A stretch of DNA of 64,000 bases from Actinomycetota bacterium. Lineage in GTDB: Bacteria > Actinomycetota > Thermoleophilia > Gaiellales > F1-60-MAGs149. The translations under genes and the position numbers were made by a program. The stretch's first letter is position 1. Each line of letters starts with the position of its first letter. The DNA is taken from NCBI GenBank assembly GCA_009885805.1, contig VFJZ01000005.1:1-64000 (forward strand). Reading direction: 5' to 3'. The notes beneath the pieces are model-generated. The model was not told where the DNA came from. It was given only the letters and a program-made list of their open reading frames with translations, and ran no database searches. Below are positions 3,548 through 50,543 of the stretch, in pieces.

Positions 3548-3795
3548 TTGCCCACCGCCACCTTCCGCAGCGCACGCGCGGCGTGCAGGATGCGGACGCC
3601 CGAGTCGTTGACCTGGCCGATCCCGGCGAGCGCGTCGGTCTGCTTGCGCAGCACCTCGACCGCACCGACCGCCGTCTTCGCCTGCCGGTCGATCCGCGCC
3701 GCCAGCATGACGATCGCGATCACGATCACCGCCGCGACCAGGATCACGACGACGCCGATGGCGATCCCGAGCTGCCACTGCGCATCATCAGACAT
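3544..3795 (-). CDS. Small single-pass membrane protein, first gene of the cox operon (83 aa)
   Basis: The membrane helix is about residues 9-33 (LGIAIGVVVILVAAVIVIAI), followed by ARIDRQAKTAVGAVEVLRKQ and a basic C-terminus. The ATG at 3795 has a GGGAGG ribosome site about 8 nt upstream and lies 34 nt below the -10 of a clear promoter. All later cox genes follow with overlaps or gaps of at most 15 nt, so this is the operon's leading gene. No family is recognised. Confidence 0.72.
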   Translation of the reverse strand: MSDDAQWQLGIAIGVVVILVAAVIVIAIVMLAARIDRQAKTAVGAVEVLRKQTDALAGIGQVNDSGVRILHAARALRKVAVGK

Positions 3796-7129: not shown

Positions 7130-8683
7130 GTGACGACCACAACCCGCCTTCAACCGTTCCACCAGGCGAGCTGGAACCAGCCGCTGGTGTTCGAGCAATC
7201 CACCCCTGGCGAGCGGGGCTTCATCCCACCCGCGTCCGGCGCCACGATCGAGGCGGCAGTCGGCGATCCGCTGGCGGCGCTCCCGGCCTCCCTTCGGCGA
7301 TCGCTGCCACCCGGGCTGCCCGAGCTGGCGCAGCCGACGGTCCTGCGGCACTACCTGCGCCTGTCGCAGGAGACGCTCGGGCAGGACGTCAACATCGGCC
7401 TCGGTCTCGGCACGTGCACGATGAAGTACTCGCCGAAGGTGAACGAGGAACTGGTGCGCAGCCACAAGGTGCGCGATCTGCACCCGCTGCAGGACGACGA
7501 GACGGTGCAGGGCCTGCTCGAGGCGATGCACCGGTTCGAGCGGATCCTCTGCGAGATCTCCGGTCTCGACCGCTTCACGTTCCAGCCGGGCGGCGGCTCG
7601 CAGGCGGTCTACGCGAACGCGCGGATGATCGCCGCGTACCACGCCGCGCGGGGCGAGTCGCACCGCGACGAGATCATCACGACGGTCTTCTCCCACCCCT
7701 GCGACGGCGCCGGGCCGGCGACGGCCGGCTTCCGTCTGATCACGTTGCACCCGGGCGAGGATGGCCTCCCATCGCTCGAGGCGCTGAAGGCGGCGATCTC
7801 GGAGCGGACGGCCGGGCTGATGATCACGAACCCGGAAGACACCGGCTTGTTCAACCCGCAGATCGACCGCTTCACGGACATCGTCCATGCGGCCGGCGGG
7901 CTGTGTCACTACGACCAGGCGAACGCGAATGGCATCCTCGGCGTCACCCGCGCCCGCGAAGCCGGTTTCGACCTCTGCCAGTTCAACCTCCACAAGACGT
8001 TCTCGTCGCCGCACGCGTCGATGGGGATGCCGGTCGGGGCGTCCGGTGTCACGTCGGCGCTGGCGCCGTTCCTGCCGACGCCCGTGGTCGAGGCGGCGGA
8101 CGGCGGCTATCGACTCGACTACGACCGCCCGCAGTCGATCGGGAAGGTGCGCCAGTTCCACGGCGTCCCGGCGACGGTCGTGCGCTCGTTCGCGTGGGTG
8201 CTCGCGCTCGGCGCCGAGGGGCTGCGCGAGGTGGCGGAGATCGCCGTCCTCAACAACAACTACCTCGCGCATCGCCTGGATGGCATCAGGGGCCTCGAGG
8301 TCTCGTTCGCGGACGGCAACGACGCCCGGCGCCTGGAGCAGGTCCGCTACTCGTGGCGGCAACTGAACGCCGACACGGGCATCGGCACGATCGACCTCGC
8401 GCGGCGCACCGTCGACTATGGCGTACAGCAGTACTTCCCGAGCCACGAGCCGTGGCTGGTGGAGGAGCCGATGACGCTGGAGCCGGCGGAGACGGTGTCG
8501 CGTGCCGACCTCGACACCTACGCCGAGATCATCACCCGGGTCGCTGCCGAGGCCTACGACGAGCCGGAGACGATCCGCACCGCGCCCCACTCCTCAACCT
8601 CCCACTTCCTCGACGCGGCGCCGATGGACGATCCCGAGCGGTGGGCGTTGACGTGGCGGGCGTGGCGCCGAAAACACGCGTGA
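7130..8683 (+). CDS. gcvPB: Glycine dehydrogenase (decarboxylating) subunit 2
   Basis: A 517-aa PLP-bearing beta subunit. The glycine-rich GLGTCTMKYSPKVNEEL and FQPGGGSQAVYAN segments and the PLP lysine in NLHKTFSSPH are present. It starts at GTG 7130, 8 nt after the gcvPA stop, with GGAG upstream. Its TGA stop lies inside a dispersed palindrome that probably serves as terminator against the convergent amidase gene. Confidence 0.95.
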   Translation: MTTTTRLQPFHQASWNQPLVFEQSTPGERGFIPPASGATIEAAVGDPLAALPASLRRSLPPGLPELAQPTVLRHYLRLSQETLGQDVNIGLGLGTCTMKYSPKVNEELVRSHKVRDLHPLQDDETVQGLLEAMHRFERILCEISGLDRFTFQPGGGSQAVYANARMIAAYHAARGESHRDEIITTVFSHPCDGAGPATAGFRLITLHPGEDGLPSLEALKAAISERTAGLMITNPEDTGLFNPQIDRFTDIVHAAGGLCHYDQANANGILGVTRAREAGFDLCQFNLHKTFSSPHASMGMPVGASGVTSALAPFLPTPVVEAADGGYRLDYDRPQSIGKVRQFHGVPATVVRSFAWVLALGAEGLREVAEIAVLNNNYLAHRLDGIRGLEVSFADGNDARRLEQVRYSWRQLNADTGIGTIDLARRTVDYGVQQYFPSHEPWLVEEPMTLEPAETVSRADLDTYAEIITRVAAEAYDEPETIRTAPHSSTSHFLDAAPMDDPERWALTWRAWRRKHA

Positions 8684-8715
8684 AAGAGCGGGATCTGATC
8701 CCTTTCTTTCACGCG
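8677..8715. repeat. Dispersed palindromic element, copy 1
   Basis: The outer arms CGCGTGAAAGA (8677-8687) and TCTTTCACGCG (8705-8715) are perfect complements. The inner arms GGGATC and GATCCC flank a single T. It sits between the convergent gcvPB and amidase genes and contains the gcvPB stop codon. A nearly identical 33-bp core (one base different) occurs at 50488-50520 with different but also self-complementary flanks. It probably acts as a bidirectional terminator or REP-like element. Confidence 0.75.
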
Positions 8716-36569: not shown

Positions 36570-36662
36570 GGGGCGGCAGCTCCCTGGTGGGGGATCCGGT
36601 CTTCAAAACCGGCAGGGCGGCGTAGCCCGTCGCTTGGTAGGTTCGATTCCTGCGCCGCCTCG
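36570..36662 (+). tRNA. selC: tRNA-Sec (anticodon TCA)
   Basis: A 93-nt selenocysteine tRNA. The 8-bp acceptor GGGGCGGC pairs with GCCGCCTC (one G-T). It has an extended D stem CTCCC-TGGT-GGGGG, anticodon arm CCGGT-CTTCAAA-ACCGG with anticodon TCA, a long variable arm with GGGC/GCCC, and T arm GTAGG-TTCGATT-CCTGC. Discriminator G, no CCA. Its 3' half is part of the 64-bp repeat that borders the integrated element. No selA, selB or selD is in the window. Confidence 0.93.
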
Positions 36663-36663
36663 T
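36600..36663 (+). repeat. attL: 64-bp direct repeat in the tRNA-Sec 3' half
   Basis: The repeat runs from the last base of the anticodon 5' stem to one base past the tRNA. It is identical to 40657-40720. The element supplied this copy and so keeps the tRNA intact. Confidence 0.92.
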
Positions 36664-36803: not shown

Positions 36804-37809
36804 ATGGCGCAGCTCGCCGGCATCGAGGTCAGGCACGCCAAGGCATGCGCGTCGCGCTGCTCCCGTCGCTGCAACTGCCGGCCGACCTACCAGGCGAGCG
36901 TCTGGAACGCGCGCGAGGCGACGCGGATCCGCAAGACCTTCCCGACCCTCGCGGCGGCGCGCGCCTGGCGCTCTGACGCGCAGACGGCGATCCGGCGCGG
37001 CACGATGCGCGCGCCGCAGACGCTGACGCTGCGGGAGGTCGCGGCAGCCTGGCTCGAGGGCGCCCGCGACGGTAGCATCCGCAACCGCTCGGGCGATCAC
37101 TACAAGCCGAGCGCAGTACGCGGGTACGAGACGTCGCTGCGTCTCCGGCTGCTCCCCGTTCTCGGCTCGGCGAAGCTCTCCGAGATCCAGCGCGGCGACG
37201 TCCAGGCCCTCGTGGACGTGATGCTCGCTCACCAGGTGGACGCCTCGACGATCCGGAACACGCTGATGCCGTTGCGGGCGATCTGCCGGCGCGCGGTCGC
37301 GCGCGGCGACCTGGCCGTGAACCCGACGACTGCGATGGCGCTGCCCGCCGTGCGCGGGAGGCGTGATCGGGCCGAAGTCGCGCGCCGGCCGCCGATCGGT
37401 GCCCATCGCCGCGGTCCTCCGCGATCACCTGGTCGAGCACAAGCACGAGGCCGGCCAGCACGAGCTCGTATTGGCAACGCTGAACGGTAACGCGTTCGAC
37501 CCGGCCATGATCGCCGAGCGGTCCCGACGGGTGTGGCGATGGGCCGGGCTGGAAGGGATCACCCTCCACGAGGCGCGTCACACCTTCGCCTCCCTGATGA
37601 TCGCCGCCGGAGTCAACGCCAAGGCGCTCGCCGACTACACGGGCCACGCCTCGGTCACGATCACCTTCGACCGCTACGGCCACCTCCTGCCCGGCAACGA
37701 GGACGAGGCGGCCTCGCGGCTCGACGCCTACCTCGAGCGCGCGGACACGCAAGCCCGATTGGCCCAGCTCGACGGACGGTCAGACGAGCAGGGCCCGACA
37801 GAAGCGTGA
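36804..37809 (+). pseudogene. int: Tyrosine recombinase/integrase with internal deletion
   Basis: From ATG 36804 the N-terminal arm-binding and SAM-like core domains are intact (KTFPTLAAARAW, LTLREVAAAWLEGARDG, STIRNTLMPLRAICRRAV) up to LPAVRGRR near 37360. The continuation is in another frame and starts at GPKSRAGRRSVPIAAVL. It holds the C-terminal catalytic residues HEARHTF, GHAS and the Tyr in DRYGHLLP. The expected stretch of roughly 70 residues with the first catalytic Arg (usually GLRRGEL) is missing. The junction near 37352-37370 therefore marks an out-of-frame deletion. Confidence 0.82.
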
Positions 37810-40656: not shown

Positions 40657-40720
40657 TCTTCAAAACCGGCAGGGCGGCGTAGCCCGTCGCTTGGTAGGTT
40701 CGATTCCTGCGCCGCCTCGT
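40657..40720 (+). repeat. attR: displaced 3' half of tRNA-Sec
   Basis: A perfect 64-bp copy of 36600-36663. The sequence 5' of it does not restore the acceptor, D arm or anticodon stem, so it is not a functional tRNA. Confidence 0.92.
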
Positions 40721-45795: not shown

Positions 45796-46974
45796 TCAGG
45801 GAAACAGGCGGTCGGCGATTCTCCCGAGCGGCACGCCCTGCACGACCAGCGACAGCACGACGACGACTCCGGTCAGCGCCAGGATCGCCTCGCCGGCCTC
45901 GAGCCCGGCGGCTAGCGGCAGACTCGCGAGGAGGATCGGAACGGCACCGCGCAGGCCGGCAATCGAACCGAAGAGTGCCTCGCCGCGCGTGTAGCCCAGG
46001 GCCGCCAGGGTCGGCAGGGCGAACAGTGGGCGCAACACGAACAGCAGCAACGCACCGGTCGCAAGCGCGGGCCACAGCACGTCGCCATAGGCGACCTGGG
46101 TCATCACAACGCCGAGGAGCACGAACATGGCGATCTCGGCGAGGTGGGCGAGCTCCGAGTGCAGCGCGATCACAGCCTCTCGCTCCGGGATCACCCGATC
46201 AGCGATGACCAGACCGAAGATGTACACCGCGACGTAGCCGGAGCCGTGCAGCAGCGCCGTACCGCCGAAGGTAACGAACGCGCCGGCGAGGACGGTGAGG
46301 GCCGGCACCGACGCGATTGTCGGCCGAAGCGGACCGAGGATCCGCGCGAGCGCTTCTGCGACTGCGATCCCGACCAGGACGCCGACGACGCCCTCGACTG
46401 CCATCACGCCGGCGATGTGGCCGACCGAGGCGGCCTCGCCGTCGACGGCGGCAGCGACGAAGGCGATCGCGAGCGCGATCGCGATCGGATCATTGAGGCC
46501 CGCCTCGCCCTCGAGGACGTGTGCGATCCGCCCCACGCGTCGGGCCTGGCCGGCGAGAGCGGAGAACACCGCGGCCGGGTCGGTCGGCGAGAGCACGGCC
46601 CCGACGATGAGCGCGGCCGGCCAGTCCATCCCGACCAGTTCGTGTGCGAGCAGGGCACCGACCCCGAACGTCAGCAACGTGCCGCCGACACCGAGGACAA
46701 GCACCGGAGCGATCACCCTGCGAAACGCCCTCATGCCCGACCCGAGGCCGCCGGCGGCGAGAATCACGATCAGCGCGCACGTGCCGACGAGGTTGAGGAC
46801 GTCCCCGGTGACGGCGCCCGAGACCGTCGGCACGGTGCCGAGCACGACGCCGCCGAGCAGGAACAGCAGCGAATCGGGCACTCGCAGGCGAGTCGACAGT
46901 GGCTGAAGCAGCAGCGCCGCGAGCGCGATCCCGCCGCAGACTGCGATCAGTTCCGCCGTCTCGCGCAAAGACAC
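45796..46974 (-). CDS. CPA1-type Na+/H+ antiporter
   Basis: A 392-aa cation:proton antiporter with about 12 membrane helices. The ion-site motif is GAVLSPTDPAAVFSAL (about residues 125-140), with EGEAGLNDPIAIALAI and a late GLRGAVPILLASLP. Start GTG 46974 was chosen because it puts the first helix at the N-terminus; an upstream non-ATG extension lacks homology. No cytosolic regulatory tail is present. Divergent from the aldolase gene. Confidence 0.87.
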   Translation of the reverse strand: MSLRETAELIAVCGGIALAALLLQPLSTRLRVPDSLLFLLGGVVLGTVPTVSGAVTGDVLNLVGTCALIVILAAGGLGSGMRAFRRVIAPVLVLGVGGTLLTFGVGALLAHELVGMDWPAALIVGAVLSPTDPAAVFSALAGQARRVGRIAHVLEGEAGLNDPIAIALAIAFVAAAVDGEAASVGHIAGVMAVEGVVGVLVGIAVAEALARILGPLRPTIASVPALTVLAGAFVTFGGTALLHGSGYVAVYIFGLVIADRVIPEREAVIALHSELAHLAEIAMFVLLGVVMTQVAYGDVLWPALATGALLLFVLRPLFALPTLAALGYTRGEALFGSIAGLRGAVPILLASLPLAAGLEAGEAILALTGVVVVLSLVVQGVPLGRIADRLFP

Positions 46975-49346: not shown

Positions 49347-50543
49347 GTGACGCCGGCCGAGATCCGCCTCGCCGCGCTCGTGGCGACGATCGCCTTCGTC
49401 GACATCGCGGTCTGGCTCACCCTGGTGCCGTTGATCCCGTTCTGGGAGGATGAACTCGGACTCAGCCATCGCCAGTCGGGCCTGGCCCTCGGTGCGTACG
49501 GACTGGCCGTGCTGCTCCTGTCGGTGCCGTCCGGGCACCTGGCCGATCGGCTCGGGCCGCGGCGGCTCGCGATCACCGCCGTCGTGCTGTTCGCGGCGAC
49601 GGTACCCCTGTACGCGATCGTCGCGACGTTCGAGCAGTTGCTGGCGCTGCGCGTCGCGGGCGGCCTGTTCTCCGCTGTGTCGTGGACTGCCGGCCTCGCC
49701 TGGCTCGTCGCGTCGACGCCCGAGAGTCACCGCGGCCGGGCGCTCGCGGCCGTCAACTCGGCCGCGACGGCCGGGTCGCTCGTCGGGCCGTTGCTGGGCG
49801 GGCCGATTGTCGCCGGCCTCGGACTCGGGCCGACCATGGTCGGGGTCGGCGTGCTCGTCGGCGCGCTCGCGCTGTGGGCGCTCGTCGAGCCGAACCGGGA
49901 GCGGCACGTCGCCGGCGAACCGGTCTCGCCACGTGCCGTGATCCGGGCGGCGCGCTTCGAACCTGGCCTCTCCAACGCCTTCGCCGGCATCTTCTTCGCG
50001 GCGACGGCGATGGGCGCGCAGCAGATCCTGGCGCCGCTGCACTTCGATCGCGAGGGATTGTCGCCGGCGACGATCGGCTGGATCTGGACCGTCGGCGCGG
50101 CGATCTCCGTCGCGATCGCGGCGCTCGTCGGCCGCAGACTCGACCGGATCGACAAGCGGCGGACGGCGCGGTTCGGCGTCGCATCCGTCAGCGGCCTCTG
50201 CTGCCTGCTCGCGTTGTCGCCGAGAACCGCTGCCTACGCCGTCCTCGTGATCGCGATCCTCGGCGTCGGCACCGTCATCTGGACGACCGTCTATCCGCTC
50301 TGCTCCGAAGCAGCCGAGCGGGCGGGCGTCGGACAGGGCGCCGCACTGGGGATGCTGAATGCGGTCTGGGCGTTGGCAACGGTGATCGCGCCGATGGCCG
50401 CCGGCCTGCTCGCAGACGCCGAACTGGCTGCCGTCGGCTACCTGGCGGTCACGGCGCTCGGCGCCGTCACCCTCGCCGTCCTGCGCCGTGAAAGAACGGG
50501 ATCTGATCCCTTTCTTTCACGGCGCGGCGGTGGCGACGGTTGA
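49347..50543 (+). CDS. MFS transporter
   Basis: A 398-aa 12-helix major facilitator. The loop 2-3 motif is [14 protein letters not shown] (about residues 62-75), with [20 protein letters not shown] and a second-half [17 protein letters not shown]. It is probably a sugar or drug efflux type. GTG 49347. Its last 20 or so codons run through palindromic element copy 2, so the C-terminal sequence [12 protein letters not shown] is encoded by the repeat. Confidence 0.87.
50483..50525. repeat. Dispersed palindromic element, copy 2
   Basis: Arms GCGCCGTGAAAGA (50483-50495) and TCTTTCACGGCGC (50513-50525), with inner GGGATC/GATCCC. The 33-bp core differs from the copy at 8680 by one base (A for G). 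The flanking base pairs are different yet still complementary. It lies inside the 3' end of the MFS gene. Confidence 0.75.

What the first reader, a model, noticed from the sequence alone, without database searches (positions are those of the whole stretch)
8677..8715. Palindromic dispersed repeat whose flanks co-vary
A 33-bp core occurs here and at 50488-50520 with one mismatch in 33. Outside the core the bases differ between copies (CGC..GCG versus GCGCC..GGCGC), yet both keep perfect pairing. That suggests selection for a hairpin rather than simple copying. Both copies touch 3' ends of genes. It may be a REP/MITE-like family of this lineage acting as terminator.
Basis: seen in the sequence. 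Interest (0 to 1): 0.6.

Follow-up and report, generated by a model that had tools for sequence, protein, structure and literature searches.

The report
Mobile hairpin repeats with own transposase
The two hairpins belong to a family of 33-base palindromes scattered mostly just after genes in this bacterial genome, probably copied around by a nearby single-strand transposase; the complementary bases around many copies look like small palindromes already present where the element landed.

Summary
The 33-nt core lies at 8680-8712 and 50488-50520 with one mismatch and paired flanks. It is one of 35 copies at 33 places in the 3.56-Mb genome; none was found in 60 related genomes. Flank pairing is far above chance: at 30 independent sites, summed pairing runs are 76 bp against 25.6 for permuted flanks (0 of 10,000). 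Flanks are unrelated between copies, which fits insertion at small pre-existing palindromes better than compensatory evolution; empty sites are not proven. Two inverted copies bracket a single HUH/Y1 transposase gene (RAYT/TIRYT type, C-terminal HTH) in the same genome, and a related genome repeats the layout. Of 33 places, 17 lie between convergent genes, 0 between divergent genes and 5 in frame within ORFs; the element's TGA is the stop codon of 17 flanking genes. It lacks the GT[AG]G tag of canonical REPs and resembles self-complementary TIRs of TIRtrons. Terminator function is plausible but untested. Verdict: a new variant of a known kind; the sequence-free palindromic target is the interesting part.

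The parts
8680..8712 (+). copy 1 of the 33-nt palindromic element (family A)
8677..8715 (.). copy 1 with its paired 3-bp flanks (CGC/GCG)
8681..8683 (+). TGA inside the element used as stop codon of the upstream gene 7130-8683
7130..8683 (+). upstream gene (recalled name: GcvPB-like, glycine dehydrogenase subunit 2), ends ...TWRAWRRKHA*; most listed homologues end ...TWRAYxRK followed by 2 to more than 10 residues
8747..10237 (-). convergent downstream gene (recalled name: amidase-like), 34 bp beyond the element
50488..50520 (+). copy 2 of the element, read in frame as [12 protein letters not shown] near the C-terminus of an MFS gene
50483..50525 (.). copy 2 with its paired 5-bp flanks (GCGCC/GGCGC)
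49347..50543 (+). MFS transporter gene (PF07690) that reads through copy 2

Best explanation
The element (family A) is a REP-like, non-autonomous mobile hairpin copied in trans by a HUH/Y1 tyrosine transposase of the RAYT/TIRYT type, encoded in the same genome and bracketed by two inverted copies. Inferred mechanism: the transposase recognises the folded single strand (stem, internal loop, GGATC centre) and inserts it into other single-stranded DNA. Many sites are at small pre-existing palindromes or hairpin tips, so the host flanks on both sides pair and lengthen the stem. Insertions survive mainly just after genes, or in frame in loops, because both ends carry TGA, 33 nt is 11 codons and four of six frames are open. 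Shown: copy number, transposase linkage, flank pairing, gene context, in-frame insertion. Inferred: mobilisation by this enzyme, the single-strand route, and the palindromic target. Any terminator effect would be a by-product.
For: 35 copies in this genome; 0 in the other 60 of 61 genomes searched. Y1_Tnp gene C16:46346-46663, 230 aa, lies between element copies at C16:45981-46013 (+) and 46748-46780 (-). It matches E. coli TnpArep 4er8 at E 2.5e-6 and NF047646 at 64.4 bits, below its cut-off of 80; NHLH and YVVANP motifs and a C-terminal HTH are visible. A second Y1_Tnp gene (C33) has its own 33-nt palindrome family B on both sides. In G022 the closest relative (39%) is bracketed by copies of GTGAAAAATTGGGGTCTGACCCCGTTTTTTCAC, and in G074 a relative is bracketed by TGCGAAGNAGGGGACTGTCCCCTTCTTCGCA-type copies. 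Flank pairing: 76 vs 25.6, 0 of 10,000 permutations; runs of 3 or more in 14 of 30 sites against 2.3% of 3976 positions near gene 3' ends. Context: 17 convergent, 9 co-directional, 5 in-gene, 2 undetermined, 0 divergent of 33. In-frame insert in an MhqO-like dioxygenase, where the 28 aligned relatives have a gap of at least 8 residues.
Against: No transposition was observed and no empty allele of the same site is in hand; only one genome of this genus appeared among those searched. 16 of 30 independent sites have fewer than 3 bp of abutting flank pairing. One copy (L016) has a 10-bp direct duplication of its flank, which single-strand Y1 insertion does not predict. The G074 family shows no flank pairing above chance and the few sister copies show little, so the target preference would be peculiar to family A. 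Three other Y1-like genes (C33, C98, C67) are present, so the assignment of enzyme to element rests on position.
Confidence: 0.7

Rival explanations
1. One reading: flanks covary because a long hairpin is selected after insertion (terminator or mRNA 3'-end stabiliser), so the outer bases change in compensated pairs.
For: Pairing is real; 17 of the 26 intergenic places with both neighbours called are convergent, P 3.7e-7 against the convergent share (11 of 57) of the window's gene pairs; RNA folds are strong.
Against: Flanks are unrelated between copies whose cores are nearly identical, so there was little time for compensated drift; inside the core the variable positions 9-10 are often unpaired and only the outermost pair shows a compensated change, in 1 of 35. 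In-gene copies pair too (L035 4 bp, L041 4 bp, L018 5 bp). The related G074 family shows none (63 vs 63.3).
Confidence: 0.15
2. Flank pairing was made after insertion by replication template switching at the hairpin, which copies one flank in inverted form onto the other side and lengthens the stem.
For: A hairpin-prone 33-mer is a good substrate; pairing starts at the element border and decays outward (positions 1-4 significant); L016 has a 10-bp flank duplication.
Against: Some sites pair at a distance with unpaired bases next to the element (L031 8 bp, L022 8 bp), which outward copying would not give. The equally hairpin-prone G074 family does not show it. L016 is better as a direct (10 of 10) than as an inverted (8 of 10) duplication.
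Confidence: 0.15
3. Ordinary intrinsic terminators that look alike by common function rather than by copying.
For: 3'-end position; the inner stem followed by TTTCTTT scores as a terminator-like site.
Against: 27 of 33 core positions are invariant in all 35 copies; head-to-tail tandem copies and in-frame copies exist; 0 copies in 60 related genomes. This is copying.
Confidence: 0.03
4. MITE of a classical DDE insertion sequence with target-site duplications.
For: Palindromic element, tens of copies, one 10-bp duplication at L016.
Against: Abutting direct repeats of 4 or more are seen in 4 of 30 sites, three of them CGCG; the gene bracketed by two copies is a Y1 HUH enzyme. Other transposase families were not searched.
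Confidence: 0.05

Closest known systems
TIRtrons / TIRYT (Di Nocera et al. 2013, PMC3733652; abstract, sections 7, 15, 16 and passages read)
   Same: Tyrosine transposase gene bracketed by inverted repeats that in some species are self-complementary and form moderately abundant dispersed families; shared motif GGGGWSAS. The sister family in G022 has GGGGTCAG exactly; family A has GGGATCAG, one compensated change away.
   Different: Family A's unit is a 33-nt palindrome with TGA at both ends; its sites are sequence-diverse palindromes.
TnpAY1 subclass 2.1 (Quentin et al. 2018, PMC6006769; abstract and outline, sections 11, 12 and part 1 of 15 read)
   Same: NHxH and Y---NP motifs and a C-terminal HTH-like domain.
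   Different: The paper reports no REP-like sequences near subclass 2.1 genes; here such a gene is bracketed by a dispersed palindrome family. Subclass was judged by motifs, not by their profiles.
Canonical REP / REPIN with RAYT (E. coli type; PMC8266576, passages read)
   Same: Short dispersed hairpins with an internal loop, at gene 3' ends, next to a Y1 transposase; REPs also often supply stop codons (PMC3733652, section 15).
   Different: No GT[AG]G tag; mostly single copies, not inverted dimers.
T. roseum GTAG-23 elements inserted in small palindromes (PMC3733652, section 7)
   Same: A dispersed hairpin sitting inside small GC-rich target palindromes.
   Different: There the target has a sequence consensus; here it varies from site to site.
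Rickettsia palindromic elements (mentioned in PMC3733652, section 15; otherwise recalled)
   Same: In-frame palindromes inside protein genes.
   Different: Here 5 of 33 places are in ORFs; the rest are mostly at gene ends.

Membership tests
Canonical REP | 20-40 nt palindrome dispersed in one genome | tested here: met
   33 nt, 35 copies
Canonical REP | GT[AG]G (or CGTC) tag at the stem foot | tested here: not met
   Core positions 1-4 are GTGA in 32 of 35 copies and CTGA, TTGA, ATGA in the others; no GTAG, GTGG or CGTC at the foot
Canonical REP | mainly between convergent or co-directional genes | tested here: met
   17 convergent, 9 co-directional, 0 divergent of 33; 5 in-gene, 2 undetermined
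REPtron / TIRtron | Y1 tyrosine transposase gene bracketed by inverted copies | tested here: met
TIRtron | GGGGWSAS motif in the repeat | tested here: inconclusive
   Family A has GGGATCAG; the sister family in G022 has GGGGTCAG
TIRYT / TnpAY1 subclass 2.1 | HUH, Y---NP and C-terminal HTH | tested here: met
   NHLH, YVVANP; HTH_23 and Sigma70_r4 matches, all below Pfam cut-offs
TIRYT / TnpAY1 subclass 2.1 | match to the published subclass profile | not tested
   profiles not held
RAYT/TnpAREP activity | single-strand cleavage and joining of the hairpin | not testable with these tools
   needs protein work
MITE with TSD | target-site duplication at most copies | tested here: not met
   4 or more bp in 4 of 30 sites, one of 10 bp
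Intrinsic terminator | GC stem followed by U-tract | tested here: inconclusive
   Only the inner 5-bp stem plus TTTCTTT fits (copy 1 region only); no U-tract after the full hairpin

The most novel reading that the evidence does not exclude
The HTH-bearing Y1 transposase copies its hairpin into the tips of pre-existing DNA hairpins by shape, not by sequence: a structure-directed insertion system whose targets are often gene-end palindromes, so each insertion lengthens a stem and can hand both convergent genes a stop codon.
Probability: 0.3. Interest if true: 0.65.

Novelty: new variant of a known kind. Interest (0 to 1): 0.42.

Why it matters
It ties HTH-bearing Y1 transposases, a group reported as lacking REPs (PMC6006769), to dispersed palindromes in this class of bacteria, and it offers a measurable signature (flank pairing without shared sequence) for insertion directed by DNA shape, which could be tested in vitro. 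It also explains the [16 protein letters not shown] inserts and tails in predicted proteins of this genome.

Tried and rejected
Exact pattern over GTDB r220 genome contigs: 0 stretches. Viral contigs: 0. My first pattern for the sister family missed it because the gap bounds were wrong (0 of 4 genomes); a second pattern, itself one base too long, gave 5 matches in G022 and 1 in G019 of 6 genomes, so these are low counts. Treating the four copies that share a longer repeat (L040, L045, L026, L046) as independent was rejected; three were dropped before the count. An empty copy of that longer repeat was sought: two places lack the element, but C17 holds a different hairpin and C11 only the right part, so this is suggestive, not an empty site. 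A PDB search with the ArsN2-like protein gave nothing. The literal GGGGTCAGACCCC-type palindromes were not found in any relevant paper (10 papers listed, none on bacterial repeats by title), nor Thermoleophilia with palindromic repeat and transposase (0), within the held open-access library only. Structure prediction was not run.

Limits: gene calls come from a codon-usage script of mine trained on this window, not from an annotation. GcvPB and amidase are recalled names; no family search was run on those two proteins. Family B rows include one shifted overlap and were not permuted. The G074 rows (54) cover fetched loci only and a loosened pattern.

Full report
Observation. The core is present at 8680-8712 and 50488-50520 with one mismatch, and its flanks pair for 3 and 5 bp. 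The pair is not chance.

Family. In the window's own genome (G000, 3,564,947 bases, 101 contigs, 95% complete) a 23-nt part of the core with up to 3 mismatches marks 35 copies at 33 places; two places are head-to-tail tandems with a 33-nt period. Of 61 genomes searched, 1, this one, has it. Two of the 35 copies lie in the window and a third on the same contig outside it. Twelve of 16 core pairs never vary. Positions 9-10 of the left arm vary (A/G/T and C/A/T/G) against a constant TT, which gives an internal loop in the folds. Pair 11-23 is G-C in 30, G-T in 4 and G-G in 1. The outermost pair is G-C in 30, A-T in 1 and unpaired in 4.

Transposase. PF01797 finds three genes over cut-off in the genome, and a protein search adds a fourth related gene on C67. 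The C16 gene (230 aa) lies between two inverted element copies, 45 bp from the upstream one; the downstream copy supplies its TGA. It carries NHLH, YVVANP and a C-terminal HTH, and its only PDB relative by sequence is TnpArep. The C33 gene has a different 33-nt palindrome, GTGTCGCA...TGCGACAC, on both sides, with 17 exact genome copies, often as inverted dimers 37 nt apart. In 299 genomes of the class, 108 have a relative of the C16 protein at E 1e-10 or better. Of 30 loci scanned for palindromes beside such genes (29 of them outside this genome), several carry GGGGTCAGACCCC- or GGGACTGTCCC-centred palindromes, some on both sides; others show none. In G022 the bracketing sister repeat is GTGAAAAATTGGGGTCTGACCCCGTTTTTTCAC.

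Flank pairing. For 31 single copies the summed run of perfect pairing outward is 80 against 27.8 for permuted flanks, 0 of 5000. After merging tandems and dropping three of four copies that share a longer repeat, 30 sites give 76 against 25.6, 0 of 10,000; runs of 3 or more in 14 of 30 (2.8 expected), of 4 or more in 10 of 30 (1.2 expected). The mean duplex energy of 15-nt flanks is -12.0 against -9.3 for permuted, 0 of 400. Random positions in the window have runs of 3 or more at 3.1% and positions near gene 3' ends at 2.3% of 3976. The junction is C|G in 16 and G|C in 7 of 30. Sixteen sites have fewer than 3 abutting pairs, but some of these pair further out with a bulge or mismatch (L022, L031, L016). 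As a control the G074 family shows 63 against 63.3, and the five G022 copies have runs of 0, 1, 2, 0, 0. So the pairing is specific to family A, not a by-product of high G+C.

Reading of the pairing. Flanks do not resemble each other between copies, although the cores do; they therefore belong to the sites. PMC3733652 (section 7) reports REPs within palindromes in three species, one of them with small G+C-rich targets. I take insertion into small palindromes as most likely (about 0.5 on its own), with template switching and selection as rivals. L016 is instructive: the flank CTCAGCTGAC, which holds the stop codons of two convergent genes, is present on both sides.

Gene context. By my gene of 33 places are convergent, 9 co-directional, 5 inside an ORF, 2 undetermined and 0 divergent; 17 gene ends at 12 places use the element's TGA. 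In the window 11 of 57 neighbouring gene pairs are convergent. In the dioxygenase (PF00903) the element adds 11 in-frame codons in a loop where the 28 aligned relatives have a gap of at least 8 residues (28 of the 29 fetched relatives could be aligned by my script). The ArsN2-like protein still passes its model's cut-off (129.2 vs 125) with the element in frame. Of the five ORF cases one (L021) is a short, weakly scoring ORF. The window's upstream gene ends within the range of its homologues' C-termini, so the insertion sits at or very near the natural end.

Known or new. It works like a REP/RAYT pair. It fails the GT[AG]G tag of canonical REPs and fits TIRtrons best, with a near match to GGGGWSAS. 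The link of an HTH-type Y1 enzyme to a dispersed palindrome family contrasts with the statement in PMC6006769 that subclass 2.1 has no REP-like neighbours, though PMC3733652 already described TIR families for such enzymes.

Taxonomy.

Noticed in passing
window 36570-36662 and 40657-40720: A tRNA-SeC gene whose last 64 bases (36600-36663) are repeated exactly at 40657-40720; an ORF between them (37399-37809) holds an HEARHTFASLM stretch that I recall as typical of tyrosine recombinases. It looks like a small integrated element with att-like ends.
   Followed up: partly
L070:2918-2950, 3648-3721 (C33) and loci L073-L087, L123, L124: A second dispersed 33-nt palindrome family (GTGTCGCA..TGCGACAC) bracketing its own Y1 transposase gene, often in inverted dimers 37 nt apart.
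   Followed up: partly
L040, L045, L026, L046, L120, L119: A longer repeat holds element A in four places, a different GGGGTCAG-type hairpin at C17 and a truncated form at C11.
   Followed up: partly
L071:2598-2667 (C98): A perfect 31-bp-arm hairpin just upstream of a third Y1 transposase gene.
   Followed up: no
L125:1905-2447 and 2598-2644 (C67): A fourth, shorter Y1-like gene without the HTH end, near a GGGGCCTGTCCCC..GGGGCCAGGCCCC palindrome.
   Followed up: no
G074 loci L102, L126-L163: A single-contig genome of the class with a REPIN-like family TGCGAAGNAGGGGACTGTCCCCTTCTTCGCA on both sides of its Y1 transposase gene, with left-arm variation at the same place as in family A.
   Followed up: partly
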